Part shown: in pieces, positions 27,089-41,055 of the stretch
Layout: every line of letters starts with the position of its first letter
Numbering within the stretch: the stretch's first letter is position 1
Assembly: GCF_001428305.1 (NCBI RefSeq)
Contig: NZ_LMRZ01000006.1
Location: 310,001 to 374,000, forward strand
Length of the DNA: 64,000 bases
Source: Janibacter sp. Soil728
GTDB taxonomy: Bacteria > Actinomycetota > Actinomycetes > Actinomycetales > Dermatophilaceae
Reading direction: 5' to 3'
The notes under the pieces: generated by a model
Seen by the model: the letters and a program-made list of their open reading frames with translations, nothing else
What the model was told of the DNA's origin: nothing
Databases searched by the model: none
Made by a program: the position numbers and the translations under genes

Positions 27089-27802
27089 ATGAACCGCACG
27101 ACCCTGCGCTCCGGCGCTGCCCTGACCCTCGCCCTCGCCGCCCTGACCGCGAGCGCCCTGCCCGCCTCGGCCCACGTCCGCGTCACGCCCGACGCCACCG
27201 CCTCCGGCGGCTACGCGGCTCTGACCTTCCGCGTGCCCAACGAGTCCGACAAGGCCTCCACGACCAAGCTCGCGGTCACCCTCCCCCAGGACCGGCCTCT
27301 CGCGAGCGTGTCCGTCCGTCCGGTCCCCGGGTGGACCGCCAAGGTCACGACCGAGAAGCTGCCCGAGAAGGTGACCGCCAACGAGCTCACGCTCAGCGAG
27401 GCTCCGCGCACGATCACGTGGACCGCGGACTCCACGGCCGCCGGCATCGCCCCCGGCGAGTACCAGGAGTTCGCGATCAGCGCGGGACCGCTCCCGAAGC
27501 CCGGCACGCTGACGCTCCCCGCGAAGCAGACCTACTCCGACGGTGAGGTCTATGACTGGTCGGACCTGCCGAAGGCGGATGGCGAGGAGCCGGAGAACCC
27601 GGCGCCGAGCTTCGAGGTCACTGCGGCAGAGGAGGGCGGCCACGACGCCACCGCTGACGAAGGGGGCGAGACGGCCACTCCCGCGGCCCCCACCGCCACG
27701 GCTGACTCCTCCGACACCCTCGCCCGGGTGCTCGGTGGGCTCGCGCTCGTCGTCGCCCTGGCGGGCGCCGGTCTTGCGCTGAGGGGGCGCCGCCGAGTCT
27801 GA
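27089..27802 (+). CDS. YcnI-family (DUF1775) copper-associated membrane protein
   Basis: 237 aa. A signal peptide ends after SALPASA, leaving a mature N-terminal His (AHVRVTPD), the copper ligand of YcnI. The immunoglobulin-like domain holds TFRVPNES and WTAKVTTEKL. A Glu/Ala/Thr-rich linker precedes a C-terminal helix with an Arg-rich tail (RGRRRV). The RBS GAAGGAT lies 6 bases before the ATG. A hairpin terminator follows. Confidence 0.9.
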   Translation: MNRTTLRSGAALTLALAALTASALPASAHVRVTPDATASGGYAALTFRVPNESDKASTTKLAVTLPQDRPLASVSVRPVPGWTAKVTTEKLPEKVTANELTLSEAPRTITWTADSTAAGIAPGEYQEFAISAGPLPKPGTLTLPAKQTYSDGEVYDWSDLPKADGEEPENPAPSFEVTAAEEGGHDATADEGGETATPAAPTATADSSDTLARVLGGLALVVALAGAGLALRGRRRV

Positions 27803-27811
27803 ACCTGAACA

Positions 27812-27842
27812 TCCTGGTTGGGCCGGGGTGGCCCAACCAGGA
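27812..27842. terminator. Hairpin terminator after the ycnI-like gene
   Basis: Perfect 13-bp arms TCCTGGTTGGGCC (27812-27824) and GGCCCAACCAGGA (27830-27842) with a 5-base loop. It lies between convergent genes and probably serves both. Confidence 0.88.
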
Positions 27843-27894
27843 CCGGATTTCCCGGCTACCGAGGAGCGACGGCACGACCCGACGTTGACGTCAG

Positions 27895-29106
27895 TCACCC
27901 GAGAGTGACGAGATCTGGCGTGATTTCGCGGACGGATGCGACGCCGAGCAGCTGCATCGTGCGGCGGATGTCGTCCTCGAGGATCGTCAGGGCTCGTGTG
28001 GCGCCGTACTCTCCTCCTGCCATCAGACCGTAGAGGTATGCGCGACCGACGAGGACGAAGTCGGCGCCCAGGGCGAGTGCCGCGACGATGTCGGCGCCGC
28101 TCATCACGCCGCTGTCGACGAGCACTTCGGCGCCGGTCCCGTCGAGGACCTGGCGCACTGCAGGTAGTTGTCGAAGAGGTGCGGTGGTGCGGTCCAGCTG
28201 GCGTCCTCCGTGGCTGGACACCACCACGCCGTCAGCGCCCAGGCCGACGGCACGACGTGCGTCACGGGGATCCTGCAGGCCCTTGACGAGCAGCCGCCCC
28301 TTCCACACCGAGCGCAACCAGGTCAGGTCATCGAAGGTCAGGCTGGCGTCGAACATCTCTGTGATGAGGTCGCTGACCGAGCCGGGGAAGGATTTCAGCG
28401 ATGCGAAGGCGGGCGGCTCCGTGGTGAGGAAGTTTGCCAGCCACACCGGGCGGGTGGCGACGCGTGCAGCGTCTCGGATCCCGAAGGACGGGGGGATCGT
28501 CATGCCGTTGTGGACGTCCCGCCGGCGATGACCGCCCACGGGGGTGTCGACCGCGAGCAGCAGTGTGTCGTAACCCTGCTCGGAGGCCCGTGACATCAGC
28601 TCGACGGACGCGGCCCGGTCCTTCCACAGATAGAGCTGGAACCAGCGCCGGGCGCCTGGTGCTGCCGCGGCAACGTCCTCCAGCGACACCGAGCTCATGG
28701 TCGACAGTGCGAAGGGGATGCCCGCGGCGGCTGCGGCGCGGACCCCGGCAGCCTCCCCTTCGTGGTGCAGGAGACGGGTGAGCCCGATCGGGGCGATGCC
28801 GAAGGGGAGCGCCGAGGGAGCCCCACCGATGGTCGTCGTCAAGTCGATGCTGCTGACGTCGGTGAGGACACGGGGATGGAAGTGGACATCACGAAAGGCC
28901 TGTCGACCGCGGGCCATGCTCAGCTCCGAGCCGGCCGCCCCATCCATGTAGTCGTAGGCGACACCTGGTACCCGCCGCCGGGCGATGTCACGGAGGTCTT
29001 CGATGCTCGTGGCGCGGTCCACCCGGTCTCGGACGGGGTGGCGCGAGGGTCGGGGCGGGCGCAGGGTCTCGCGGAGGAAGGTCGGTGACGGCCACTGACG
29101 TTTCAC
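27895..29106 (-). CDS. FMN-dependent alpha-hydroxy-acid oxidase/dehydrogenase
   Basis: 403 aa, TIM-barrel flavoprotein that oxidises an L-2-hydroxy acid to the 2-oxo acid (lactate, glycolate or mandelate type). Visible FMN and catalytic motifs: YDYMDGAAGSE, FGIAPIGLT, FQLYLWKD, LLAVDTPVGGHRRRD, VKGLQDPRDA and SHGGRQLD with the base His near 295. The start is the GTG at 29106 with AAGGAG close upstream. Substrate is not settled by sequence; the divergent 2-oxoacid oxidoreductase argues that its product is decarboxylated onward. Confidence 0.92.
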   Translation of the reverse strand: MKRQWPSPTFLRETLRPPRPSRHPVRDRVDRATSIEDLRDIARRRVPGVAYDYMDGAAGSELSMARGRQAFRDVHFHPRVLTDVSSIDLTTTIGGAPSALPFGIAPIGLTRLLHHEGEAAGVRAAAAAGIPFALSTMSSVSLEDVAAAAPGARRWFQLYLWKDRAASVELMSRASEQGYDTLLLAVDTPVGGHRRRDVHNGMTIPPSFGIRDAARVATRPVWLANFLTTEPPAFASLKSFPGSVSDLITEMFDASLTFDDLTWLRSVWKGRLLVKGLQDPRDARRAVGLGADGVVVSSHGGRQLDRTTAPLRQLPAVRQVLDGTGAEVLVDSGVMSGADIVAALALGADFVLVGRAYLYGLMAGGEYGATRALTILEDDIRRTMQLLGVASVREITPDLVTLG

Positions 29107-29166
29107 GTGTGCTCCTTGGACTCGACATCTTCATCACTTGACGAGGCACCATCGCTCCCGCACACT

Positions 29167-29195
29167 GATTGTGACACAAAGACTGTGTCACAATC
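29167..29195. promoter_or_regulatory. Double palindromic operator in the oxidase/oxidoreductase divergent region
   Basis: GATTGTGACACA (29167-29178) and TGTGTCACAATC (29184-29195) form a perfect inverted repeat around 5 bases. Each arm is itself palindromic: TTGTGACACAA (29169-29179) matches the GntR/FadR-type TNGTNNNACNA operator exactly and the second site (29183-29193) in 10 of 11 positions. Its end is 16 bases upstream of the ATG at 29212, so binding could block the promoter of the oxidoreductase and perhaps of the divergent oxidase. The GntR gene at 34632 is the obvious candidate binder. Confidence 0.72.
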
Positions 29196-29211
29196 TTGGA
29201 GGACGATGTCA

Positions 29212-32200
29212 ATGAAGTTGTCGGACCGCCTGGTGGCCGAAGGTGGCACCCACTATCTGCCAGGGATGCAGGCACTCATTCGCTTCCCGTTGGAGCAGGC
29301 ACGACGCGACCGTGCCGCCGGCTTGCGGATCGGCACCTTCATCTGCGGGTACCCGGGCTCCCCCATCGGCAGCCTCGACCTCAATCTCGAGCGCATTCCC
29401 GATCTGCTGGCTGAGCACGACACGACCTTCCTCCCCGCAGGCAACGAAGAGCTCGCGATGACCGCCCACATGGGCACGCAGATGCTCGACGACCACCCGC
29501 ACTCGCAGTGGGACGGCGTCACGAGCATCTGGTTCGGCAAGGGCCCTGGGGTCGACCGCAGTGGCGACGCCCTCAAGCACGGCAACTTCGCTGGCACGTC
29601 GAAGCATGGCGCCGTCGTCATCCTCTCCGGCGAAGACCACGAGGCGAAGTCCTCGACGATGCCCTTCCAGCAGGAGTACGCCTTCATGTCCGCGGGTGTC
29701 CCTGTCATCTATCCGTCGTCGGTGGCGGAGTTCCGTACATTCGGAATGCATGCCGTAGCGATGTCGCGCTTCTCGGGCTGTTGGGTCTCGATGAAGCTCA
29801 CGAGCTCACTGTGCGACTCGGCCGCATCGGTCACGTTCGACCCTGATGACGCGCGCCCTGTCCTGCCCGAGGTGACCATCGAGGGTGCCCCCTTCGTCAA
29901 GCGGACCGATTTCTCGTTCTTCCCCGGCAAGAACGTCGAGATGGAGCGTCATCTGTACCAGGAGCGGCACGTCGCCGTCCGCGAGTACGCCCGGACCAAC
30001 CGGCTCGACGAGGTCGTCGTCAGCGGCAAGCGCGACACGATCGGCATCATCACCGCAGGCAAGTCGTACACCGACCTGCGACAGGCGCTGACCAACCTCG
30101 GGGTGACCGAGGAGGATCTGCGGGCTGCAGGGGTGCGGATCCTCAAGCTCGGGCTGATCTACCCGATCGACGCAGACGCGGTGCGCGACTTCACCGACGG
30201 CCTCGACCGGGTCATCATCATCGAGGAGAAGCGCGACGTCATCGAGCAGCAGGTGCGGGCGGCGCTGCAGCCTCTCGGCCGCCCGATCGACGTCACCGGC
30301 AAGACCGACTCGACCGGAGGTCGGGTCTTTCCCGTCGAGGGCGGGATGGACGCCGACTTCGTCACCCTCCGCCTCGCGGAGCTCCTCGGCGCCGACATCG
30401 CCGGCCTCACGGATGCCCCGCGCCTGCGTGTGCTGGCCGAGATCGGCGAGCGTGAGCACGTCGCCCATCAGGCCCGCACGCCGAACTTCTGCTCAGGATG
30501 TCCTCACAGCGCCTCGACTGTCCTGGCCCCCGGACAGGAGGCTTGGGGCGCACCAGGGTGCAACTGCTTCAACACCGTCATCGAACAGCCCGAGCGGCAC
30601 ATCGATGTCATGACGCAGATGGGCGGCGAGGGCCTGCCCTGGGTCGGCCTGAGCCGGTACACCGACAAGAAGCACATGGTCCAGCACCTCGGTGACGGCG
30701 CGCTGTACCACTCGAGCTACCTCAACATCCGTTGGGCGGTCGCTACCGGCACCAACATCACCTACAAGATCCTCTACAACGGCGTGCTGGCCAACACCGG
30801 CGCCCAGACCCCGGTCGGCGAGCACGGGCTCGCCGACCTGACCCGCGGGTTGGAGTCCGAAGGTGTCAAGCGGATGGTCATCCTCAGCAAGGAACCACGC
30901 AAGTACGCGAGCCAACCGATCGCGGCGGTCGTCGAGGTCCGGCACGCGGACAAGATGGTCGCGACGGCCGCGGAGCTCGAGGAGGTCCCCGGCTGCACGG
31001 TGATGATCTACGACGAGTCGTGCGCCAACGAGCGGCGTCGCCTGCAGAAGCGCGGGAAGCTCGAGAAGCCCACCGAGTTCGTCGTCGTCAACGAAGACGT
31101 CTGCGAGAACTGTGGCGACTGCGGCCGCTCCAGCAACTGCATGTCCTTGCAGAAGACGCCGACGGAGTTCGGCCCGAAGACCCGCATCCACACCTCATCG
31201 TGCAACCAGGACTTCTCTTGCATCAAGGGAGACTGCCCCGCCTTCGTCACGGTGCGGACCGAGGAGGGCCATGGCTATCGCAAGCGGGACCCGCGCACGA
31301 TCCAGAACAACGAGCTGGCAGAGCCGACAACCCGGGCGCAGCTACCGGCCGACGAGCCCTTCCACCTCTACATGCCGGGGGTGGGGGGCACCGGAGTCCT
31401 GACCCTCAACAGCGTGCTCGCCGTAGCCGCGATGCTTGATGGCCATGGCGTGCACTCCTTCGACCAGACGGGGGCTGCACAGAAGTGGGGTCCGGTGCTT
31501 TCGAGCTTGGCCATCGTCCCGGAGGGCCTGACGCACTGGACGAGCAAGACCGGCCAAGGACAGGCCCACGCGTACCTCGCGCTCGACGAGGTGGGGGCCG
31601 GCGCGATCACCAATCTTCAGCGCTGCACCCCCGAGCGGACCTCCGCGGTGCTGAACTCCGACCTCTTCCCGACCGGCGAGCAGGTACGCGACGTCTACGC
31701 GACCGTGGACTCGGCCGGGCTGCGCGCCAGCATCGACGAGGTCACCGATGACCTCGTCGAGGTACGCGCCCGGTGGATCGCCGACGAGCTATTCGCCGAC
31801 TACATGCTCACCAACATCATCGTCGTCGGCACTGCATACCAACATGGACTGCTCCCGCTCTCCGCGGATGCGATCGAAGAGGCGCTGCGGATCAACGGAG
31901 TGGCCGTCGACCGCAACATCCAGGCCTTCCGCTACGGCCGGCTGTGGGCGATCGACCGCCAGCAGGTCATCGACGAGATCGTCCCGCCCGCCCCGGACGC
32001 AGCCACTGAGCTGACCCGCCGCCGCAGTGAGTTGGCGGCGCCCGCACAGGCCGTCCTCGACCAGCTCTGGACGCGGACGGAGGGCCTGGACGAAGAGAGC
32101 CGACGGTTGCTGGCTGTGCGCCTGCCGGAGCTGCTCGACTACGCGGACCACGCCGCGCCCGCCCACGACTACCTGGGCAAGGTGCTCGAGGTGGCGGCCG

Positions 32201-32757
32201 CCGAGGACCGCGTGGCACCCCAGCGTCGGGAGCTCACCCACGCGGTCATCCGACATCTGTTCAAGGTGACCGCGTACAAGGACGAGTACGAGGTCGCCCG
32301 GCTGCACCTCAAGCGCGGCTTCGCCGACCACGTCGCCGACACCTTCGAGGGCGAAGTCGAGATCGCGTACAACCTCCAACCCCCGTTGGCGCGACGCCTC
32401 GGGATGGGCAAGATCCGCATCGGGTCGTGGTTCGACCCGGCGTTCAAGGCCCTGCGCGCCACCCGACGCCTGCGCGAGACGCCCCTCGACCCCTTCGCCC
32501 GACAGGCCTCCCGTATCGAGGAACGCTCCGTGAAGCGGTGGTATCTCGAGCTCGTCGACGAGCTCGTGGATCGCGTCTCTCCGCTCAATCACGCCGTGGC
32601 CGTACAGCTCGCCGAGCTGCCTGACGGCATCCGCGGATACGAGCAGGTCAAGCACGCGGGAGTTCTCGCGGCACAGGCGAGAGCCGAGCGACTGCGTGAA
32701 CAGCTCACACGTCCTCCATTGACGTTGAGTGTCGCCGCACCAGCGACACGAGGCTGA
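29212..32757 (+). CDS. Fused indolepyruvate:ferredoxin oxidoreductase-family 2-oxoacid oxidoreductase
   Basis: 1181-aa single-chain enzyme that converts an aryl- or branched 2-oxo acid and CoA to acyl-CoA and CO2, passing electrons to ferredoxin or a flavoprotein. Domains: N-terminal thiamine-diphosphate pyrimidine part with CGYPGSP near 40, ThDP-binding part with FCSGCPHSAST near 425, Fe-S cysteines (CENCGDCGRSSNC, then CNQDFSCIKGDC) near 630-670, and a C-terminal gamma-like domain with PGVGGTGVLTL near 720. GGAGG lies 9 bases before the ATG at 29212, preferred over an ATG at 29206. No ferredoxin gene is adjacent. True substrate unknown. Confidence 0.92.
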   Translation: MKLSDRLVAEGGTHYLPGMQALIRFPLEQARRDRAAGLRIGTFICGYPGSPIGSLDLNLERIPDLLAEHDTTFLPAGNEELAMTAHMGTQMLDDHPHSQWDGVTSIWFGKGPGVDRSGDALKHGNFAGTSKHGAVVILSGEDHEAKSSTMPFQQEYAFMSAGVPVIYPSSVAEFRTFGMHAVAMSRFSGCWVSMKLTSSLCDSAASVTFDPDDARPVLPEVTIEGAPFVKRTDFSFFPGKNVEMERHLYQERHVAVREYARTNRLDEVVVSGKRDTIGIITAGKSYTDLRQALTNLGVTEEDLRAAGVRILKLGLIYPIDADAVRDFTDGLDRVIIIEEKRDVIEQQVRAALQPLGRPIDVTGKTDSTGGRVFPVEGGMDADFVTLRLAELLGADIAGLTDAPRLRVLAEIGEREHVAHQARTPNFCSGCPHSASTVLAPGQEAWGAPGCNCFNTVIEQPERHIDVMTQMGGEGLPWVGLSRYTDKKHMVQHLGDGALYHSSYLNIRWAVATGTNITYKILYNGVLANTGAQTPVGEHGLADLTRGLESEGVKRMVILSKEPRKYASQPIAAVVEVRHADKMVATAAELEEVPGCTVMIYDESCANERRRLQKRGKLEKPTEFVVVNEDVCENCGDCGRSSNCMSLQKTPTEFGPKTRIHTSSCNQDFSCIKGDCPAFVTVRTEEGHGYRKRDPRTIQNNELAEPTTRAQLPADEPFHLYMPGVGGTGVLTLNSVLAVAAMLDGHGVHSFDQTGAAQKWGPVLSSLAIVPEGLTHWTSKTGQGQAHAYLALDEVGAGAITNLQRCTPERTSAVLNSDLFPTGEQVRDVYATVDSAGLRASIDEVTDDLVEVRARWIADELFADYMLTNIIVVGTAYQHGLLPLSADAIEEALRINGVAVDRNIQAFRYGRLWAIDRQQVIDEIVPPAPDAATELTRRRSELAAPAQAVLDQLWTRTEGLDEESRRLLAVRLPELLDYADHAAPAHDYLGKVLEVAAAEDRVAPQRRELTHAVIRHLFKVTAYKDEYEVARLHLKRGFADHVADTFEGEVEIAYNLQPPLARRLGMGKIRIGSWFDPAFKALRATRRLRETPLDPFARQASRIEERSVKRWYLELVDELVDRVSPLNHAVAVQLAELPDGIRGYEQVKHAGVLAAQARAERLREQLTRPPLTLSVAAPATRG

Positions 32758-32821
32758 ATGCCCCGCCGGGAGCGTTCTACCCATCCGCGCAGACTCTCCC
32801 GAGCACCCGTTTGATCGGTCA

Positions 32822-32850
32822 GCCAATAGCCCAACACGGCGTTGGTTGGC
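32822..32850. promoter_or_regulatory. Inverted repeat between the oxidoreductase and the symporter genes
   Basis: GCCAA (32822-32826), CCAAC (32831-32835) and the matching GTTGG (32841-32845), TTGGC (32846-32850) form a bulged stem 64 bases after the oxidoreductase stop. It could end that transcript or act as an operator. A near-match to the GntR-type box, TTGTCCAAGTA at 32861-32871 (one mismatch), follows it. Confidence 0.35.
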
Positions 32851-32903
32851 ACCAGAGAAGTTGTCCAAGTACGCATGTTTCGCCAATGAAGTCGGAGAAG
32901 AAC

Positions 32904-33023
32904 ATGACCATGTGGTGGGTTTTGATCGTGGGACTGATCGTCGGGTGGACCCTGACGATCGGCGTCCTGTACGCAACCTATGGAGCCAATGACGAAGACC
33001 TCGTCACCGAGGAGCCGTCATGA
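32904..33023 (+). CDS. 39-aa single-span accessory protein of a sodium:solute symporter
   Basis: One transmembrane helix (MTMWWVLIVGLIVGWTLTIG) followed by an acidic tail ending EEPS. The ATG at 32904 has GGAGAAG at good spacing. Its stop overlaps the symporter start as ATGA. Very short membrane subunits directly upstream of SSS or NSS carriers are known (for example small subunits of methionine/alanine importers), so a role as a stabilising subunit is likely. It is too short for usual gene finders and easily missed. Confidence 0.78.
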   Translation: MTMWWVLIVGLIVGWTLTIGVLYATYGANDEDLVTEEPS

Positions 33024-34534
33024 TCGAAGTGACGTTCTGGATCCTCATCACCCTGCTCGTCGGGATGCTCGTAGCAATGGGAATCACCGGCGCCAAACGC
33101 TCGAGCTCGATGGCTGACCATCAGGTCCCGAAGGGCCTTAGCCACGTGTCGCTCGCTCTGTCGACGGCTTCCACCCAGGCCAGTCCTGCCACATTCCTAG
33201 GAGTCGCCGGCTTCGCCTTCGCGTCTGGACTCTCCGGACTCTGGTGGATCCTCATCGTGCCTCTTGTCTTCACCGGCGGACTCATCCTCGTCGGCAAGGT
33301 CTTCCGCAGAGTCGGCATGAGGTTCGGCTCCCTCTCGCTGCCGGACTGGGTGGGCTCGCGCTACCAGAGCGATCTGCTCTGCGTGCTCGTGGCCGTGCTG
33401 TACCTGGCCAACGTGTTCTACATCGTCTCGCAGTTCTCGGGAGTGGGACAGATCCTCAACCTCACGGGTGGACTCAACTACTCCGTCGGGCTCGTTGCGG
33501 TTGCCGTCCTCGTCGCGATCTACACCCTGGTGGGCGGCAACTACGCCGTGGTCAAGACCGATGCATGGCAGGCGGTCATCATGGTCATCGCCAGCGGGGT
33601 CGTCATCGTCGGCAGCCTCTTCATCTACAGCAACATCAACGAGATCAGCACCAATCTCGCCAACGAGAGCCCCAACCTCACTGCCGTCTTCAACCCGGAC
33701 TCCCCGGTCTACAGCGGAATCCTCGCGCTTGCCGGCATCGCCCTCTTCCAGGGGATGTTCGCGACGCAACCGCACCTGGCGAACCGGTTCCTGATGCTCG
33801 ACAGTCCCCGACAGTTCCGCTCCTTCATCCTCATCAGCGGGGTCACGGTTCTCATCCTCTCGATGAGCGCCGTGTCCGGACTAGCCGCACGAGCCCTCAT
33901 GCCCGATAGGGTCGACAGCCCCGATCAGGCGCCGATCGTCCTCGTCAACACCCTGTTCCCGACGGTCTTCGCGGCCATCTTCGCCGTGGGAGTCATCGCT
34001 GCGGCCATCTCGACGGTCAACTCCGTGCTTTCGTCGATGGGCGCCTGCGTCGGCAACGACATCTACCGCCGGCTCGCTCTCAAGAAGGGCGACGTGTCAC
34101 CCGAGAGACGGGCGCTCGTCGATCGTCGTGCGCTCCTCATCACCCGGGCCACCATCATGGTGTCGGCGATCGTGGCCCTCGCCCTGGCGTGGGAGCCACC
34201 TGAGTTCCTCGCCGTCGTGGCCACGATCGGTCTCTACGGATTCTTCGCCGGTGTCTCCGGCCCCCTAGTGATGGGCATCTACTGGCGCGGTGCAACGACG
34301 ATCGGCGCTCTGGTGACAGTCGTCCTGGGTCCAGCCTTCTTCTTCTGGCTGCACTTCATCCTCGAAGCCATCCCGAACATCTTCATCAACGGTGGTCTGG
34401 GAATCGTCTTCAGCTTCGTCGTCATGTATCTCGCGAGCCTGCTGACTCCTAAGATGCCCGCCGAATTCGTCGAGTCAGTCGTGGCCCGTGGCCGGATGAC
34501 TCCCACCGAGACGGCCGAAGTCATCTCCCGATAG
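33020..34534 (+). CDS. Sodium:solute symporter (SSS family)
   Basis: 504 aa with 13 predicted helices in the LeuT-like SSS fold. Helices carry LSTASTQASPATFLGVAGFAFA (first core helix, sodium-site Ser/Thr) and VAVLVAIYTLVGGNYAVVKTD, and SVLSSMGACVGNDIYRR in the eighth region. The GntR gene is downstream on the same strand, and the oxidoreductase upstream, suggesting import of a carboxylate such as a hydroxy or 2-oxo acid. Substrate not proven. Confidence 0.9.
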   Translation: MIEVTFWILITLLVGMLVAMGITGAKRSSSMADHQVPKGLSHVSLALSTASTQASPATFLGVAGFAFASGLSGLWWILIVPLVFTGGLILVGKVFRRVGMRFGSLSLPDWVGSRYQSDLLCVLVAVLYLANVFYIVSQFSGVGQILNLTGGLNYSVGLVAVAVLVAIYTLVGGNYAVVKTDAWQAVIMVIASGVVIVGSLFIYSNINEISTNLANESPNLTAVFNPDSPVYSGILALAGIALFQGMFATQPHLANRFLMLDSPRQFRSFILISGVTVLILSMSAVSGLAARALMPDRVDSPDQAPIVLVNTLFPTVFAAIFAVGVIAAAISTVNSVLSSMGACVGNDIYRRLALKKGDVSPERRALVDRRALLITRATIMVSAIVALALAWEPPEFLAVVATIGLYGFFAGVSGPLVMGIYWRGATTIGALVTVVLGPAFFFWLHFILEAIPNIFINGGLGIVFSFVVMYLASLLTPKMPAEFVESVVARGRMTPTETAEVISR

Positions 34535-34574
34535 GACCATGGCCCCGCCACGCCGGACCGCAGCACCGGCTTCC

Positions 34575-34606
34575 GGTGGGGGGACGAGACCGCTTGTCCC
34601 CCCACC
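34575..34606 (+). terminator. Hairpin between symporter and gntR-like genes
   Basis: GGTGGGGGGAC (34575-34585) and GTCCCCCCACC (34596-34606) pair over 11 bp with a 10-base loop, 40 bases after the symporter stop. It may separate the symporter transcript from the regulator or attenuate readthrough. Confidence 0.75.
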
Positions 34607-34631
34607 CGAGGGCCCCTGAAAGGATGAAGGT

Positions 34632-35330
34632 GTGAACAGGGAGTCAAGCCGATCGAAGGTCGTGGCCACAGTACGAGAGTTGCTGTTGGCCGGTGAGTTG
34701 CGCCAGGGCGAGCGCATCACCGAGGAGTCGGTCGCTGCAAGCATGCAGGTCGGTCGCCACACGGTCAGGGCAGCTTTCGCCGAGCTGATGTCGATGGGGC
34801 TGCTCGAGCACGTACCCAACCGCGGCGCTCGCATCCCGATCCTCGATGCCGAGCGGATCAACGACCTGTGGGACTACCGACTCACCCTCGAGGCCGGTGC
34901 CATGCGCATCATCGTGGAGCGCCAGCACGACCTTGGGTCGCTGGAGCAGCGCACGCAGGATCTGCTCGACCTGCCTGCTGACGCACCCCCGGCGGAAGTC
35001 GCCTCCGTCCACCAGCGCATCCACACCTCGATCATCGAACTGTCCGGCGTCGAACGTCTGCACGAGGCATACGCCCGGTGTGAGGCAGAGCTGCTGTGGG
35101 TGGTGTCCACGGTCAACGATGTCTACGACGCCCGTGTCCTGGGCGAGATCCACAGGGAACTGCTGGCGAGCACCCGAGCCGGCGGGCAGGCAGCCGTGGA
35201 CGCCCTCACGACCGATATCGAGAAGGGACGAGCGGCACTCCTCGACTCCATCCGGCGCAGCACCATGAGCAGGGCGCCTTTCATGGGCGTCATGCCCGCG
35301 CACGCGCTACCGCGCGGGGACCACGTCTGA
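34632..35330 (+). CDS. GntR-family transcriptional regulator (FCD-like effector domain)
   Basis: 232 aa. N-terminal winged helix-turn-helix (about 8-72: ELLLAGELRQGERITEESVA, RHTVRAAFAELMSMGLLEHV), then an all-helical FCD-like ligand domain with VHQRIHTSIIEL. FCD members sense small carboxylates such as lactate or pyruvate. Start is GTG 34632 with AAGGATGAAGG upstream. It is the probable binder of the double operator at 29167 and may control the whole island. Confidence 0.9.
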   Translation: MNRESSRSKVVATVRELLLAGELRQGERITEESVAASMQVGRHTVRAAFAELMSMGLLEHVPNRGARIPILDAERINDLWDYRLTLEAGAMRIIVERQHDLGSLEQRTQDLLDLPADAPPAEVASVHQRIHTSIIELSGVERLHEAYARCEAELLWVVSTVNDVYDARVLGEIHRELLASTRAGGQAAVDALTTDIEKGRAALLDSIRRSTMSRAPFMGVMPAHALPRGDHV

Positions 35331-35331
35331 T

Positions 35332-36675
35332 CTACCCGAGCACGGCCTCGAGCACTTCAGCGACCGCCAGCAGTCGGTGGTCTTCGAAGGGCCGCCCTTC
35401 GAGGCAGAGCCCCACGGGCAGGCCGGCCGAGGAACGACCCGCAGGAAGAGTGATCATCGGCAAACCGGCGACTGATCCCGGACCTGCGTTACGGATGATC
35501 GTGCCGAAGGTCGGCCGTTCCACTCCATCGACAGAGATGAGGTCGTCATCCCCGATCGACGGCGGCAGCACCGCCACTGTGGGCCCAAACAGCGCATCGA
35601 CACCCGACTCGGCAAAGGCCCGGGCGAACCGTCGACGAAGATCCCATCGTTGGCGCCGCGCGCGGTCATATGCCTCGAGCGACAGGTTCGTCGCCACCAT
35701 GTCCTGGACGAGACGCCGGACATCAGGTGACGCCATCCGGTGGACGAGAGATCTCATGTCGGGGTGACGGTCTGCGCCCAGGGCAACCCGTCCCGGAATC
35801 AGCCTCATGGCCTCGAAGAAGACCAGGTCCAACCCGGCACCACCGGCCAGCTCAAGGTCGTCTGGAACCTGCACGTCGACGATCCGGACACCGTTGCGGC
35901 GCAGTGTCTCTGTGGCGGCCCCGAGCACCCTCGCAACCTCACGCTCCACGTCCTCGAAACGCGAGGGGACCCGGCCGAGCACTACCTCCCCGAGCTCCGG
36001 GTCCGGGTCGGAACGACCGCTGCGGATGATGATGCGGTCCAGCGTACGAATGTCCGCGACTGTACGGGCATGGACGCCGACGGTGTCGCGTGTCGTCGAC
36101 AAGTTGACCACACCCGAACCCGGATAGCGTCCCGTGGATGGGCGGAAGCCCGGCACTCCGCAGAAGGACGACGGCACCGTCACCGATCCGCCGGTGTCCG
36201 TCCCCAGAGCGAAGGGGACACTGCCGAGTGCGACGGCCGCGGCGCTGCCTCCGCTCGACCCTCCCGCCACGCGGGCGGAGTCGAAGGGGTTGCGGACTGG
36301 GCCGTAGGTCGCGTTGTTGCTCGTGCCCCCGAAGGCCAATTCGTGCAGGTTCGTCTTCCCCACCACTACGGCCCCGGCTTCGCGAAGTGCACCCACGACA
36401 TCAGCGTCGAGGATGGCGTGCTGGTCGGAAAGGAGTGGACTGCCTGCAGTGGTCGTGAACCCTGCGACGTCAATGTTGTCCTTGACCCCGAAGGGGATCC
36501 CCGCGAGCTCTCCGGCGCCCAACTCCCCCGTGTCGGAGGGCGCATCCGACTCGCGCACCGCTATCCAGGCATGGTGGCTGTCCCTCTCGCCCCGTGCCCG
36601 GACGAGGGATTCGTGCCGTCTCGCCCGTCGCCCTCCGCTGTCCAGTTCCACCCACTGCTGCAGGTCAGGTGACAT
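35332..36675 (-). CDS. Amidase (amidase signature family)
   Basis: 447-aa Ser-cisSer-Lys hydrolase. GVKDNID holds the catalytic lysine (about 65), AGGSSGGSAAAV the cis-serine (about 140), and GTDTGGSV the nucleophilic serine (about 164). It hydrolyses amides or amino-acid derivatives; the actual substrate is unknown. The ATG at 36675 has GGAAGGGAG 4 bases before it and is preferred over an ATG at 36690. It ends 1 base from the gntR stop (convergent) and follows the FAD oxidase gene by 14 bases, so the two are one operon. Confidence 0.88.
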   Translation of the reverse strand: MSPDLQQWVELDSGGRRARRHESLVRARGERDSHHAWIAVRESDAPSDTGELGAGELAGIPFGVKDNIDVAGFTTTAGSPLLSDQHAILDADVVGALREAGAVVVGKTNLHELAFGGTSNNATYGPVRNPFDSARVAGGSSGGSAAAVALGSVPFALGTDTGGSVTVPSSFCGVPGFRPSTGRYPGSGVVNLSTTRDTVGVHARTVADIRTLDRIIIRSGRSDPDPELGEVVLGRVPSRFEDVEREVARVLGAATETLRRNGVRIVDVQVPDDLELAGGAGLDLVFFEAMRLIPGRVALGADRHPDMRSLVHRMASPDVRRLVQDMVATNLSLEAYDRARRQRWDLRRRFARAFAESGVDALFGPTVAVLPPSIGDDDLISVDGVERPTFGTIIRNAGPGSVAGLPMITLPAGRSSAGLPVGLCLEGRPFEDHRLLAVAEVLEAVLG

Positions 36676-36689
36676 GGGGCTCCCTTCCA

Positions 36690-38057
36690 TCAGAAACCTC
36701 GACCGGGATTAAGGATCCCGCCGGGGTCCAGAGCACGCTTGATCGCCACCTGGACGTCGATCGACGTCGCGTCCAAATGTTGATGAAGGTGCTCGCGCTT
36801 GAGCTCACCGACACCGTGCTCGCCCGTGATCGTGCCATCGAGGGCAATGGCTGCCGCACAGATGCGATCAGCCGCCTCGAGCCCCATGCGGCGCGAGTGC
36901 TCGGACTGGTCAGGCAGACGCAACATTGGGTGCAAATTGCCGTCCCCGGCATGACCGACGGTGGCGATCGGCAGGCCGACTGCCCGGCTGATGCCCTCCA
37001 CGCGGGTGAGCATCTCCCCGATCCTCGTCCGCGGAACTGCCACGTCCTCGATGACCGTCGGACCTTGCTCCATGACGACCCATCCGGCGAGGCGCCGCGC
37101 GTGCATGAACAGGTGTCCCTCCTCGGGGTCGCTCGTCGCCAAGGCCATGTCAGCACCTGCCTCGAGACACAGCTCGACGAGCGCATCGGCGTCAGCCACC
37201 GATGCCCCGCCATCGGTCTGGCCAATGAGCAGGAGCGCCGCATCCCGGTTCAGGTCCATCCGCTGGTGGTCCTCGACCGCGTTGACCGTGTGCCGATCGA
37301 GCATTTCGAGGACGCTCGGGGTGATTCCGGAGGCGAAGATCGCGGCGAGCGCGCGGCTCCCTTGGTCCAAGGTGCCGAAGCTCGCGATGAAGGTCGCGGT
37401 CTTCGCGGGTGCCGGACGCACCCGCAGAGTGGCTGCGGTGATGACGCCGAGGGTCCCTTCGGAGCCGATCATCAGCTGGGTCAGGTCCAGCCCGGCGACA
37501 TCCTTGACCGTCCGGCCACCCGTCGTCAGCACGCGCCCGTCGGCGAGCACGACCTCGAGGCCGAGGACCGACTGCCTGGTCACGCCGTACTTGACGCACC
37601 GCATGCCGCCCGCATTGGTCGCGAGGTTGCCACCGATCGTCGACACCTCGAAGCTACCCGGGTCCGGCGCGTAGAAGAGTCCGTGCTGGGCGACAGCACG
37701 CGAGACATCGGCGTTGACCACCCCAGCCTCGACGACGACGAGGTGGTTTCCGTGGTCGATCTCCCGGATGCGGTCCATCCGCTCGAGCGACAGGACGATG
37801 CTGCCGTCACGCGCCGCGGCTCCACCCGAGAGGCCCGTGCCGGCGCCCCGCGGTACGACCGGAGTTCCGGTGCGCTGCGCCCAGGCCAGGCAGCGGGAGA
37901 CCTCGGTCGTGCTCGTGGGCCGAACGACCGCGAGCGGACGTCCCGGCTCCACGAGACTGGCCATGTCCGCCCGGTACGCCTCGACGACATCGGCGTCGAT
38001 GACCACGACGCCCTCAGGCAACTCGTCGACGAGATCCGACAGCACGGCAGTGCTCAT
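36690..38057 (-). CDS. FAD-linked oxidase, glycolate oxidase/D-lactate dehydrogenase type
   Basis: 455 aa, PCMH/VAO-fold flavoprotein. FAD-binding VVPRGAGTGLSGGA near 58-72, STIGGNLATNAGGM near 128, VKDVAGLDLTQLMIGSEGTLG near 170, and the C-terminal ITGEHGVGELKREHL and GILNPGRGF. Such enzymes oxidise D-2-hydroxy acids (glycolate, D-lactate and others) to 2-oxo acids. The MFS carrier stop lies 4 bases upstream, so the carrier, this oxidase and the amidase form one minus-strand operon. Confidence 0.88.
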   Translation of the reverse strand: MSTAVLSDLVDELPEGVVVIDADVVEAYRADMASLVEPGRPLAVVRPTSTTEVSRCLAWAQRTGTPVVPRGAGTGLSGGAAARDGSIVLSLERMDRIREIDHGNHLVVVEAGVVNADVSRAVAQHGLFYAPDPGSFEVSTIGGNLATNAGGMRCVKYGVTRQSVLGLEVVLADGRVLTTGGRTVKDVAGLDLTQLMIGSEGTLGVITAATLRVRPAPAKTATFIASFGTLDQGSRALAAIFASGITPSVLEMLDRHTVNAVEDHQRMDLNRDAALLLIGQTDGGASVADADALVELCLEAGADMALATSDPEEGHLFMHARRLAGWVVMEQGPTVIEDVAVPRTRIGEMLTRVEGISRAVGLPIATVGHAGDGNLHPMLRLPDQSEHSRRMGLEAADRICAAAIALDGTITGEHGVGELKREHLHQHLDATSIDVQVAIKRALDPGGILNPGRGF

Positions 38058-38060
38058 CCT

Positions 38061-39383
38061 TCAGCGTCCCGTCTCGACCACTGCCACCGCGGGCTCAGAC
38101 GGCACTCGGGCCGCGACCGCCTTGCGCCGAGGCACCAGGAGGGAGACCACGGCACCGACGCAGGCCACGCCCGCGAACATGTAGAAGGCCGGGGCCACGC
38201 TGCCACCGGCGATGACCAAGCCGGTCAGCGTAGGGCCGACGATGCCACCGATACGACCGACGGACGCAGTCCATGCCGTGCCCGCCGCACGGCACGAGGC
38301 GGGGAAGGATGCGGCAGCGAAGCCGTAGATGAGCACCTGCGCACCGATCGTCCCGGCGCCAGCGACGAAGGCCATGACGTACAGGAAGGCGATCGGCGAG
38401 TCCGTGCTGAGCATGATGATCGCCACGGCTGCCGCCGCCAGCGTTCCAGCCGTGACGATCTGCGCGCCGATCCGATCCGACGCACGTGAGACGACGAGGG
38501 GAACGAGAATGGCGCCTGCGTTGAGCGCCAGCAGGAAGCCGAGGGCAGAGCTCGCACCGAACCCGGTCGATTCCATGATCTTGGGCAGCCAGGTGTTGAG
38601 CCCATAGGTGAGCATCAGGCCGCACGCGCTGAGCAGACCCATGAGCACGGTCGTCACCCAGAGGCCTCGCGTGAAGAGGCCCCGCGGGCCCGAACGCTCC
38701 TCGGCCAGCGGTGGCAGCGGCCGGTCGATGCCTGCGGCGTCGGCGACGGCGTAAGCCTCGTCGTGACGACCTCGCGCCAGGAGGAAGGACGGGGACTCCG
38801 GGAGATGCCGCAGCATGAGGGGCACGAAGACAATGAGAGGGATGGTGCCGATCGCGTACATCGCCCGCGGGCCGAAAGCGTCGATGACCCAGAGGCCGAG
38901 CAGTGAAGCCAGGACCCCGCCAGCGGGATAGCCCGCCCAGACGATTGCGCTGTGGGTGTGAGCCCGGCCCTTCGGCGCGAACTCCACGGCCATCGCGGCA
39001 GCGAGCGGGATGAGGGCACCGACGCCGAAGCCGACCATGAAGCGGGCGAAGCCGAAGAGGGTGGCGTCCGGCGCCACAGCGCAGACCCCGGTCCATGCGG
39101 AGTACCAAGCGGTCGCGCCGATCATCAACCACCGTCGCCCGATGATATCGGCGATGGCGCCGACGGTGATCGATCCGGCGAGCATGCCGACGAGGGCGTA
39201 GCTCCCGACGACCCCCGCGTACTCGGTCGACAGGCCCCAGGCCGGGTCCTCGAGCATCGCCGGCAGGGTCACACCGTAGGCCACCATGTCGTAGCCCTCG
39301 AAGACGATGGACAGGGCACAGAGCACCAGCACCAGGCGGGCTGAGGTACCGGCCGAAGGCGCGGATCGGAAGGGTCGGGGCAT
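38061..39383 (-). CDS. MFS transporter, aromatic acid:H+ symporter (AAHS)-like
   Basis: 440 aa with 12 predicted helices. VFEGYDMVAYGVTLP in helix 1, GAIADIIGRRWLM in loop 2-3 and GARFMVG-like FARFMVGFGVGALIPL fit the AAHS group that imports benzoate-type acids. The ATG at 39383 is chosen since AGGAG lies about 9 bases upstream; the longer frame has no support. First gene of an operon with the FAD oxidase and amidase. Regulated by the divergent LysR gene most likely. Confidence 0.82.
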   Translation of the reverse strand: MPRPFRSAPSAGTSARLVLVLCALSIVFEGYDMVAYGVTLPAMLEDPAWGLSTEYAGVVGSYALVGMLAGSITVGAIADIIGRRWLMIGATAWYSAWTGVCAVAPDATLFGFARFMVGFGVGALIPLAAAMAVEFAPKGRAHTHSAIVWAGYPAGGVLASLLGLWVIDAFGPRAMYAIGTIPLIVFVPLMLRHLPESPSFLLARGRHDEAYAVADAAGIDRPLPPLAEERSGPRGLFTRGLWVTTVLMGLLSACGLMLTYGLNTWLPKIMESTGFGASSALGFLLALNAGAILVPLVVSRASDRIGAQIVTAGTLAAAAVAIIMLSTDSPIAFLYVMAFVAGAGTIGAQVLIYGFAAASFPASCRAAGTAWTASVGRIGGIVGPTLTGLVIAGGSVAPAFYMFAGVACVGAVVSLLVPRRKAVAARVPSEPAVAVVETGR

Positions 39384-39530
39384 GAGGCACAACTCCTCGT
39401 GGCAGGGCGACTGGGCACGCATCGACCCCTGCCACTCGGACCGCGTGCGTGGGCACGAGCAGCCGAAGACCTTCCCGCACTGCTCTGTGCGCGAGGTCAG
39501 ACGCTAGAAGCAACCGAGCCATTAGGTCCA

Positions 39531-39542
39531 ATGAAGATTCAT
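39531..39542. promoter_or_regulatory. Palindrome in the AAHS/LysR divergent region
   Basis: ATGAAGATTCAT is a 5-2-5 inverted repeat 22 bases before the TATACT -10 element of the lysR-like gene, near where a LysR regulator would bind its own promoter. LysR boxes often have T-N11-A symmetry; this one is compatible. Confidence 0.4.
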
Positions 39543-39575
39543 CATGAGTGCATCGACCGCATCTATACTGGGGTG

Positions 39576-40475
39576 GTGTTGTCGGACCTCAACTTGCTCA
39601 GGACGTTCGTCCTGCTCCACGAAACCCGAAGCGTGACCAGAACGGCCGAGCGGCTGTCGGTCACGCAACCCTCGGTGAGCCATGCCCTGGCACGGCTGCG
39701 ACGGGATCTCAACGACCAGCTCTTCAGCCGCTCTCCGCGGGGGTTGCGATCGACCCACCGGGCCGATGAGCTTTACCCGCACCTGAAAGACGCCCTTGAC
39801 GCGATCGACGCGACGCTCGACGGCACCACGGGCTTCGACCAGTCGACCTCCCGCCGCGCCTTCCGCCTCCTGTGGACCGACCTCGGCGAGGTGAGTCTCC
39901 TGCCCCCGCTGCTCGAACGGATATGCGTCGAGGCGCCAGGGGTCAGCCTGAGGGTCGACCCGCTCGACATGGGGCGGGTCGAGGACGAACTGCGACAAGG
40001 ACACGCCGACGCGATCATCTGCATTCCTCGGATCACCTCGCCCGACATCGAGCGCACCATGCTCTTCGACGACGTCTACTGCGGCATACGGGCCACCGAC
40101 CATCCTCGTCTTCGTGAGGATCCGACCCTGGAGGAGTTCTGCGCAGAGCGGCACATCACCGTGGACGCGGCCGCGGGACACACCGACGTCGACGAGGCCC
40201 TCGCTCGCGTCGGCGCCACCCGCGACGCTGCTCTGCGAATCTCGCACTTCGCCGCACTACCCCAGCTCGTAGAAAGCTGTGACTGCCTGGCGATCATCCC
40301 AAGCACCGTGGCCCGGCAGTTCCGCCAGGTTGCGCGGGTCACCCCCTTCGCCCTTCCGCTGGACGTGCCACCCGTGCAGGTGTCCTGCTACACCTACCGA
40401 CGGCGTATCCCCGACCCCGGCATCCAGTGGCTGCGGCAGACAGTCCTTGAGGTCCTGCGCGACTGGAGCAGCTGA
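39576..40475 (+). CDS. LysR-family transcriptional regulator
   Basis: 299 aa. The N-terminal helix-turn-helix TRTAERLSVTQPSVSHALARLR lies near 20-41, followed by the two-lobe effector domain. The GTG at 39576 has a TATACT element ending 6 bases before it, a near-perfect leaderless promoter; an ATG at 39531 could add 15 residues. Divergent from the AAHS-like carrier, which suggests it controls the carrier-oxidase-amidase operon. Confidence 0.9.
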   Translation: MLSDLNLLRTFVLLHETRSVTRTAERLSVTQPSVSHALARLRRDLNDQLFSRSPRGLRSTHRADELYPHLKDALDAIDATLDGTTGFDQSTSRRAFRLLWTDLGEVSLLPPLLERICVEAPGVSLRVDPLDMGRVEDELRQGHADAIICIPRITSPDIERTMLFDDVYCGIRATDHPRLREDPTLEEFCAERHITVDAAAGHTDVDEALARVGATRDAALRISHFAALPQLVESCDCLAIIPSTVARQFRQVARVTPFALPLDVPPVQVSCYTYRRRIPDPGIQWLRQTVLEVLRDWSS

Positions 40476-40494
40476 CCGTCGCTCCGAAGGTCGA

Positions 40495-41055
40495 TCAGCG
40501 CGCCACGCGATAGCGGGAGGCGACGACCCCTGACCCGAAGGCCCGGCTGGAGACCAGCTCGAGCGACACCTGCCGCTCGAGCTCGGGGAAGAAGGTCCGT
40601 CCACCACCGACCAGCACGGGGTGGACGAAGAGCCGGTACTCGTCGATGAGGTCGAGCTCGGCGGCCTCGGCAGCCAGCTCTGCGCCGCCGACGGCGATCT
40701 CGCCCGTGTCGGACTCGGAGCGCAGGCGCTCGATCTCCTCAGCGAGCCCGCCGACGGCCAGCCGGGTGTTGCTGCCGGTGACCTCGGTGAGGGTGGTGGA
40801 GAAGACGACCTTGGGCAGCTCGCGCCACCTCCGCCCCCACTCCCGCTCCGCGGGGTCGAGGTCCGGGCCGTCGCTCTCCCAGTAGAGCATCGTCTCGTGG
40901 AGCCGCCGACCCAGCAGGTGCACGCTCGTGCCCCGCAGGTCGTGGAGGTGCTGGGCGAAGACCTCGTCGTCAGGGGTCGCCCAGTCGAAGCCGCCGTCCG
41001 GCCCCACGACGTAGCCGTCGAGCGTGGAGCCCATCGAGTAGGTCACCTGGCGCAT
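40495..41055 (-). CDS. Dihydrofolate reductase-like (RibD C-terminal domain) protein
   Basis: 186 aa with the fold of the RibD C-terminal/bacterial DHFR superfamily: YSMGSTLDGYVVGPDG near the N-terminus, LLGRRLHETMLYW, FSTTL and PVLVGGGRTFFPEL. Such paralogues are common in actinobacteria and their substrates are mostly unknown. AGGAG lies 7 bases before the ATG. Convergent with the lysR-like gene. Confidence 0.88.
   Translation of the reverse strand: MRQVTYSMGSTLDGYVVGPDGGFDWATPDDEVFAQHLHDLRGTSVHLLGRRLHETMLYWESDGPDLDPAEREWGRRWRELPKVVFSTTLTEVTGSNTRLAVGGLAEEIERLRSESDTGEIAVGGAELAAEAAELDLIDEYRLFVHPVLVGGGRTFFPELERQVSLELVSSRAFGSGVVASRYRVAR

What the first reader, a model, noticed from the sequence alone, without database searches (positions are those of the whole stretch)
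27895..40475. Island for converting both stereoisomers of a 2-hydroxy acid to acyl-CoA
Seen: an FMN alpha-hydroxy-acid oxidase (L-type), an FAD glycolate/D-lactate-type oxidase, a fused indolepyruvate-type 2-oxoacid oxidoreductase, an amidase, a sodium symporter with a 39-aa subunit, an AAHS-like carrier, and GntR and LysR regulators, all contiguous between ordinary chromosomal genes. Known: the first two families yield 2-oxo acids and the third turns 2-oxo acids into acyl-CoA. Inference: the set is one pathway, amide to hydroxy acid to 2-oxo acid to acyl-CoA, perhaps for aryl-lactates or mandelate-like compounds. Codon use and base composition appear less GC-biased here by eye, suggesting acquisition. 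I know of no described pathway with this exact gene set.
Basis: partly seen in the sequence, partly recalled or inferred. Interest (0 to 1): 0.72.

Follow-up and report, generated by a model that had tools for sequence, protein, structure and literature searches.

The report
Mandelate-to-benzoyl-CoA catabolic gene island (predicted)
A 12.7 kb block of genes in a GC-rich bacterium, probably an actinobacterium, looks like a kit for turning both mirror forms of mandelic-acid-like compounds into benzoyl-CoA, skipping the benzaldehyde step of the textbook route; this is predicted from gene content and neighbours, not yet shown.

Summary
Window 27,803-40,494 is a discrete island: GC 66.7% against 71.1% elsewhere in the window, exact empty site in three congeners, filled at the same site in one (G063). 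It encodes an FMN 2-hydroxy-acid oxidase, fused indolepyruvate-type oxidoreductase (IOR), 39-aa protein plus Na+ symporter, GntR, amidase, FAD D-2-hydroxy-acid oxidase, AAHS-like carrier and LysR. Comparison supports one 2-hydroxy-acid to acyl-CoA pathway and favours mandelate-type substrates over aryl-lactates. Top plasmid relatives of FMN, FAD, LysR, amidase and IOR lie near benzoylformate decarboxylase (BFD). A Rhodococcus opacus plasmid has FAD-BFD-FMN-IOR contiguous. A Variovorax boronicumulans plasmid has amidase, LysR, mandelate racemase, FMN oxidase and a two-subunit IOR, where four other racemase loci have BFD. In the window genome no BFD or PaaA/C was found; BoxB, BoxC and a BoxD-like gene are present. 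Proposed: (R)/(S)-mandelate, benzoylformate, benzoyl-CoA (by IOR), Box pathway. No biochemistry is shown; G063's racemase-like protein lacks canonical residues, most IOR loci examined lack such oxidases, and carrier and symporter give no mandelate link. New variant of a known kind.

The parts
27803..40494 (.). whole island; 19 bp in its place in congeners G060 and G061
27895..29106 (-). FMN-dependent 2-hydroxy-acid oxidase/dehydrogenase, predicted (S)-mandelate-type
   Evidence: FMN_dh 421 bits; best PDB match with one full-length stretch is (S)-mandelate dehydrogenase 6bfg, 272 bits, HGGRQLD kept; two double-domain lactate oxidase entries score higher in sum; 56.5% to FMN enzymes of two BFD-bearing plasmids
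29167..29195 (.). perfect 12-bp inverted repeat GATTGTGACACA-AAGAC-TGTGTCACAATC, predicted operator between FMN and IOR genes
   Evidence: 25-bp core at one place only in each of G000 and G063, same position and spacer, at up to 3 mismatches
29206..32757 (+). fused 2-oxoacid:acceptor oxidoreductase (IOR family, 1183 aa from 29,206), predicted benzoylformate to benzoyl-CoA
   Evidence: PRK13030 1192 bits; clade with G063 and two V. paradoxus plasmid IORs 100/100
32904..33023 (+). 39-aa protein, one hydrophobic stretch by eye, overlaps the symporter start by 4 bases
   Evidence: no NCBIfam match at E 0.01
33020..34534 (+). sodium:solute symporter (SSF), predicted uptake; absent from the G063 copy
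   Evidence: SSF 159 bits
34632..35330 (+). GntR/FCD regulator, candidate for the palindrome
   Evidence: 74% in G063
35332..36690 (-). amidase-signature hydrolase, predicted mandelamide-type
   Evidence: Amidase 310 bits; PRK07488 422 bits, cut-off 532 not reached; best two plasmid relatives lie in mandelate-type clusters
36690..38057 (-). FAD D-2-hydroxy-acid dehydrogenase/oxidase, predicted (R)-mandelate-type
   Evidence: 63% to two Rhodococcus plasmid proteins, both next to BFD
38061..39422 (-). AAHS-like aromatic acid carrier (MFS); start codon not settled
   Evidence: TIGR00895 243 bits, below cut-off
39573..40475 (+). LysR regulator (start inferred; longest ORF from 39,399)
   Evidence: 4 of the 8 best plasmid relatives sit directly beside BFD

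Best explanation
The island encodes uptake and oxidation of mandelate-type aryl-glycolates to the aroyl-CoA. The amidase would release the acid from its amide; the symporter and the AAHS-like carrier import the acid; the FMN enzyme oxidises the (S) form and the FAD enzyme the (R) form to the arylglyoxylate (benzoylformate); the fused IOR decarboxylates it oxidatively onto CoA, giving benzoyl-CoA, CO2 and reduced ferredoxin or another acceptor; Box enzymes elsewhere in the genome open the ring with oxygen. IOR thus takes the place of benzoylformate decarboxylase, so neither benzaldehyde nor free benzoate is formed and no CoA ligase is needed. Shown: gene content, families, synteny, island boundaries, presence of BoxB, BoxC and a BoxD-like gene; no BFD, BenA over cut-off or PaaA/C found. 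Inferred: every substrate, the order of steps, regulation by GntR and LysR.
For: (1) R. opacus pRho-VOC14-C342: FAD (63% to window), BFD (771 bits, cut-off 493), FMN (56%), IOR (38%) contiguous on one strand. (2) The two FAD relatives above 60% among 126 matching plasmid records both adjoin BFD; the best listed FAD match in the 393 other class genomes is 52%. (3) FMN: the two top-ranked of 508 plasmid records lie next to BFD or about 4.5 kb from it; in an 84-row tree window+G063 group with R. opacus FMN, 97/71. (4) LysR: 4 of the best 8 of 437 adjoin BFD. (5) The window IOR's sister sequences (V. paradoxus plasmids, clade 100/100) start about 4 kb from BFD. (6) V. boronicumulans plasmid: IOR alpha+beta, FMN oxidase, mandelate racemase (463 bits to PDB mandelate racemase 3uxk), LysR (37%), amidase (44%) within 19 kb and no BFD among them; the four other plasmid loci with racemase at 54.8% or more have BFD within 3 kb. 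(7) G000 and G063 have BoxB and BoxC above cut-off, G000 a BoxD-like gene beside BoxB; PF05138 finds only the BoxB gene; the BFD search finds only 23-29% relatives.
Against: No substrate was tested. FMN relatives of 51-60% are common, and in the 80 loci fetched none had an IOR or FAD relative in the up to 10 kb held on each side; the family includes L-lactate enzymes. In R. opacus and V. paradoxus L131 the IOR also has cupin, fumarylacetoacetate hydrolase and ligase genes near it, so it could serve another aromatic acid. Only 3 of 60 other IOR regions have an FAD or FMN relative near. BoxB also occurs in 7 genus genomes without the island. The MR-like protein of G063 has R and N where true racemases have K and D (K166/D270 numbering recalled). 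The palindrome lies only in the IOR half. V. boronicumulans also has a BFD more than 400 kb away on its circular plasmid. MFS and SSF give no mandelate link.
Confidence: 0.6

Rival explanations
1. The island degrades aryl-lactates (phenyllactate, hydroxyphenyllactate, indolelactate) through arylpyruvates to arylacetyl-CoA, the usual direction proposed for IOR enzymes.
For: IOR families are named for indolepyruvate; A. aromaticum IorAB is said to convert phenylpyruvate to phenylacetyl-CoA (PMC9765128, passage); the amidase scores 422 bits with indoleacetamide hydrolase.
Against: PaaA/PaaC were not found in G000 or G063; top relatives of five island genes lie near BFD; the same 'indoleacetamide hydrolase' model is hit above cut-off by amidases in the mandelate-type clusters of V. 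boronicumulans and B. anthina, so that name does not point to indole.
Confidence: 0.17
2. Two independent units that merely lie side by side: FMN-IOR-symporter-GntR for one acid and amidase-FAD-carrier-LysR for another.
For: One regulator in each half; the palindrome is only in the first; G063 has 5.8 kb of other genes between the halves; most IOR regions examined lack FAD and FMN relatives.
Against: FMN, FAD and IOR are contiguous with BFD in R. opacus; both halves are present or absent together at one site; amidase, LysR, FMN and IOR are together in V. boronicumulans.
Confidence: 0.15
3. Aliphatic 2-hydroxy acids (lactate, 2-hydroxyisocaproate, glycolate) are the substrates and IOR oxidises the matching 2-oxo acid.
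For: FMN and FAD families include lactate and glycolate enzymes.
Against: Such 2-oxo acids usually have dehydrogenase complexes (general knowledge, not checked in G000); BFD, racemase and aromatic-carrier neighbours do not fit.
Confidence: 0.06

Closest known systems
Pseudomonas putida mandelate pathway (mdl: racemase, (S)-mandelate dehydrogenase, benzoylformate decarboxylase, benzaldehyde dehydrogenase, mandelamide hydrolase)
   Same: FMN 2-hydroxy-acid enzyme and amidase-family hydrolase; same entry compounds predicted
   Different: no BFD found in the genome, IOR instead; a D-type FAD enzyme where P. putida uses a racemase; product predicted benzoyl-CoA, not benzoate
Anaerobic phenylglyoxylate:acceptor oxidoreductase route to benzoyl-CoA (Aromatoleum/Azoarcus/Thauera; enzyme recalled, phenylglyoxylate to benzoyl-CoA step mentioned in a passage of PMC9765128)
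   Same: 2-oxoacid oxidoreductase chemistry, phenylglyoxylate to benzoyl-CoA
   Different: there a multi-subunit enzyme feeding oxygen-independent benzoyl-CoA degradation (recalled); here one fused polypeptide and an oxygen-dependent Box pathway
R. opacus pRho-VOC14-C342 FAD-BFD-FMN-IOR operon
   Same: FAD and FMN enzymes are among the two top-ranked plasmid relatives of the window's; IOR present
   Different: keeps BFD; its IOR groups with the other class IORs, not with the window's
V. boronicumulans NZ_CP138497.1 cluster 918,886-938,137
   Same: IOR, FMN oxidase, LysR, amidase, no BFD in the cluster
   Different: two-subunit IOR (25% over the alpha part), mandelate racemase in place of the FAD enzyme, ABC transporters
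bzf cluster of Pseudomonas sp. LLC-1 (PMC7760541, passages)
   Same: LysR plus MFS carrier for benzoylformate
   Different: uses BFD and aldehyde dehydrogenase

Membership tests
fused IOR (PRK13030/NF009589) | score above curated cut-off | tested here: met
   1192 bits, cut-off 816
fused IOR (PRK13030/NF009589) | activity on indolepyruvate | not testable with these tools
   none
classical mdl mandelate pathway | benzoylformate decarboxylase | tested here: not met
   search of G000 and G063 with R. opacus BFD: relatives of 23-29% only
classical mdl mandelate pathway | mandelate racemase | tested here: not met
   none among the eight larger island genes; the G063 relative has R and N at two catalytic positions. 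The rest of G000 was not searched
classical mdl mandelate pathway | FMN (S)-mandelate dehydrogenase | tested here: inconclusive
   family and motif met, 6bfg 272 bits; substrate unknown
classical mdl mandelate pathway | mandelamide hydrolase | tested here: inconclusive
   amidase family met; no MdlY sequence was compared
anaerobic phenylglyoxylate oxidoreductase | multi-subunit architecture (recalled) | tested here: not met
   single fused protein of about 1183 aa
anaerobic phenylglyoxylate oxidoreductase | phenylglyoxylate to benzoyl-CoA activity | not testable with these tools
   none
Box pathway (in the same genome) | BoxB and BoxC | tested here: met
   751 and 870 bits, cut-offs 499 and 712
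Box pathway (in the same genome) | BoxA | not tested
   not searched
acquired genomic island | atypical composition and empty site | tested here: met
acquired genomic island | integrase or transposase within it | tested here: not met
   none of the eight larger island genes is one

The most novel reading that the evidence does not exclude
An aerobic mandelate catabolic route in which a 2-oxoacid oxidoreductase replaces benzoylformate decarboxylase, passing straight to benzoyl-CoA and the Box pathway without benzaldehyde, benzoate or a CoA ligase, and assembled at least twice: with a fused IOR in a probable actinobacterium and with a two-subunit IOR on a Variovorax plasmid.
Probability: 0.5. 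Interest if true: 0.65.

Novelty: new variant of a known kind. Interest (0 to 1): 0.55.

Why it matters
Mandelate catabolism is a textbook pathway defined by benzoylformate decarboxylase. A route that conserves the oxidation energy as a CoA thioester and avoids reactive benzaldehyde would be a second solution to the same problem, would give a concrete substrate to a branch of the large, loosely annotated 'indolepyruvate ferredoxin oxidoreductase' family, and predicts that an enzyme class usually tied to anaerobes works in aerobic aromatic degradation.

Tried and rejected
Tried and of little use: promoter/terminator scan of 27,700-40,600 (0 promoter-like, shuffled mean 1.0; 1 terminator-like, shuffled mean 3.4). 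G063's MR-like gene was first taken as a mandelate racemase; comparison with racemases of other plasmids removed that. The 39-aa protein has no NCBIfam match. The palindrome is not in 12 plasmid loci or the two Box loci at up to 4 mismatches, so it is no general mandelate operator. General IOR synteny was uninformative: 60 regions, covering 61 of the 75 match rows and 23 other than own and G063 (14 rows left out, some regions cut by contig ends), gave an FAD relative in 2 (L147, L156), an FMN relative in 1 (L189), an MR-like one in 1 (L173) and BFD-like ones of only 25-26% in 2 (L143, L144). Rejected: simple lactate use; auxin reading of the amidase. The ten paper searches showed me no paper that links IOR with mandelate; only open-licence papers are held and most hits were seen as listings.

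Control for the BFD-proximity argument (cut 15 kb start to start; 47 BFD plasmids): best 8 rows IOR 2, FAD 2, LysR 4, FMN 2, amidase 1, MFS 0; of 60 rows spread down each ranking LysR 2, FMN 2, FAD 2, each including the list's own first row. The symporter had 2 plasmid matches, neither on a BFD plasmid; GntR was not searched. One FMN record ranked fourth (Curtobacterium, 58.6% over 93%) has higher identity than the two top-ranked and is not on a BFD plasmid. C. occultum FMN was not in the FMN tree.
Full report
WHAT IS THERE. Window 27,803-40,494 holds, left to right: FMN 2-hydroxy-acid oxidase (-), a fused IOR (+), a 39-aa protein and a sodium symporter (+), GntR (+), amidase (-), FAD D-2-hydroxy-acid oxidase (-), AAHS-like carrier (-) and LysR (+). 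The IOR start is better placed at ATG 29,206 or 29,212, after GGAGG (29,198-29,202) and after a perfect 12-bp inverted repeat (29,167-29,195). The 25-bp core of that repeat is found at one place in the whole window genome G000 and one in congener G063, at the same position with the same spacer, at up to 3 mismatches.

AN ISLAND. GC is 66.7% against 71.1% for the rest of the window; GC3 is 0.77-0.87 in eight island genes and 0.90-0.94 in four flanking genes. Congeners G060 and G061 have the two flanks 19 bp apart, G059 34 bp apart. By flank identity G060 and G061 (79-96%) are nearer to G000 than G063 is (73-84%), yet of these only G063 has the island at this site. In G063 the genes are IOR 85%, FMN 80%, FAD 78%, MFS 87%, LysR 79-81%, GntR 74%, amidase 64% identical, GC3 is 0.89-0.96, the symporter and 39-aa gene are missing, and 5.8 kb lies between GntR and amidase: an enolase-superfamily (MR/MLE) protein, a binding protein, an ATPase and an IclR regulator, and an ORF that reads as a fused ABC permease (by eye; 27% to an annotated iron ABC permease). 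No integrase was seen among the scanned genes. Gain in G000 from a lower-GC source is the simplest reading; loss in sister lineages is not excluded.

DO THE GENES BELONG TOGETHER? In the family, 17 of 186 genomes have an IOR at E <= 1e-50, own included; only G063's is close (85%), the others are 38-44%. In 394 class genomes 57 match at E <= 1e-100, own included, the others at 38-42%. In 60 regions around such IORs, covering 61 of 75 match rows, an FAD relative lay near 2 and an FMN relative near 1: the general IOR does not travel with these oxidases. The window IOR is of another branch: with G063 and two V. paradoxus plasmid IORs (49%) it forms a 100/100 clade apart from the 32 other rows of the tree (36 of 65 available sequences were used).

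THE SUBSTRATE LEAD. On 72,556 plasmid records BFD relatives at E <= 1e-70 are on 47; three were checked against the curated BFD model and pass it (771, 769 and 836 bits, cut-off 493). The two FAD relatives above 60% identity, of 126 records, are each next to BFD. The two top-ranked FMN relatives of 508 records are next to or about 4.5 kb from BFD. Four of the eight best LysR relatives of 437 are directly beside BFD. The two best IOR relatives of 159 start 4 kb from BFD. The best amidase relative of 24 starts 11 kb from BFD, in a B. anthina cluster with two annotated alpha-hydroxy-acid oxidising proteins and an aldehyde dehydrogenase. Carrier and symporter show no such link. In rows spread evenly down the rankings 2 of 60 are within 15 kb for each of LysR, FMN and FAD, the top row included. 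In R. opacus the order FAD, BFD, FMN, IOR is contiguous; the tree of 84 FMN sequences puts window and G063 with the R. opacus enzyme, support 97/71, the second value moderate.

THE REPLACEMENT. Relatives of the V. boronicumulans racemase are on 6 plasmids at E <= 1e-80. Five, the query's own included, are at 54.8% or more. Four of these (Cupriavidus CP068436, Caballeronia NK8, Rhizobium RCAM05350, R. rhizogenes K84) have BFD within 3 kb (positions). The fifth, V. boronicumulans EBFNA2, has its only listed BFD more than 400 kb off on the circular plasmid; its chromosome was not looked at. Its racemase (463 bits to PDB mandelate racemase 3uxk) is in a 19-kb stretch with IOR alpha and beta, an FMN oxidase, a LysR (37% to the window's), an amidase (44%), ABC transporters and a HipA-family pair. 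The sixth plasmid (Agrobacterium, 42%) is not on the BFD list. So in Pseudomonadota, with a distant IOR type (25% over the alpha part), an IOR takes the place BFD has elsewhere. NCBI's 'indoleacetamide hydrolase' model scores the amidases of this cluster and of B. anthina above cut-off (611 and 567, cut-off 532), so the window amidase's 422 bits with it do not speak for indole.

DOWNSTREAM. G000 and G063 have BoxB and BoxC above cut-off, and G000 a BoxD-like dehydrogenase beside BoxB (598 bits, cut-off 444; it also exceeds the PaaZ cut-off). PF05138 (PaaA/PaaC) finds only the BoxB gene. BenA: 190 bits against a cut-off of 781 in G000, none in G063. BFD: only 23-29% relatives. BoxB is in 11 of 186 family genomes and 9 of 16 genus genomes, own included, so it is not tied to the island. 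A benzoyl-CoA made by IOR would have an aerobic exit; for phenylacetyl-CoA the usual one was not found.

MECHANISM AND LIMITS. Most likely: both mandelate enantiomers are oxidised to benzoylformate, IOR makes benzoyl-CoA, Box enzymes finish. Shown are genes and neighbourhoods; substrates are inferred. Ring-substituted mandelates are as likely as mandelate itself: in R. opacus and V. paradoxus L131, cupin, FAA-hydrolase and ligase genes lie near IOR, which resembles a gentisate route (my reading). The G063 MR-like protein has KxR for KxK and N for the dyad Asp (roles recalled), so its function is open.

LITERATURE. PMC7760541 (passages) gives the BFD-based bzf and mdl routes. PMC9765128 (passages) gives IorAB on phenylpyruvate and the aerobic box pathway. 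PMC9007349 (passages) held nothing on IOR for the terms used. McLeish 2003 on mandelamide hydrolase was seen only as a reference entry. A search for IOR with mandelate gave one paper, on P. gingivalis and polyphosphate (listing only); mandelate with phenylglyoxylate and benzoyl-CoA none; benzoylformate, benzoyl-CoA, oxidoreductase and mandelic acid none; mandelate, benzoyl-CoA and Actinobacteria one review on aldehydes (listing only). Only open-licence papers are held, so novelty is provisional.

Noticed in passing
L100:9871-15672 (G063): MR/MLE enolase-superfamily protein with KxR and Asn at the dyad position, plus an ABC importer (ATPase nearest to 2-aminoethylphosphonate, polyamine and iron models, all below cut-off) and IclR, between the two halves of the island; function unknown.
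   Followed up: partly
L134:14637-19561 and L135:12550-21471: Rhodococcus plasmids of DK17 and PD04 have IOR and a GlcD-like FAD enzyme adjacent or 4 kb apart, with MFS carriers, adenylate-forming enzymes, and thiolases (L134) or CoA transferases (L135): possibly further 2-hydroxy-acid routes.
   Followed up: no
window 32904-33023: 39-aa protein overlapping the start of an SSF symporter gene; no NCBIfam model found.
   Followed up: partly
window 27803-40494 versus G060, G061, G063: The island is shared with a more distant congener at the same site but missing from nearer ones; exchange through the flanks or repeated loss.
   Followed up: partly
L131:5464-23607: V. paradoxus IOR followed by a DctP-type binding protein, aryl-CoA ligase-like, FAD-binding, cupin and FAA-hydrolase genes, with BFD and an aldehyde dehydrogenase on the other strand: looks like a hydroxy-aryl acid to gentisate route.
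   Followed up: partly
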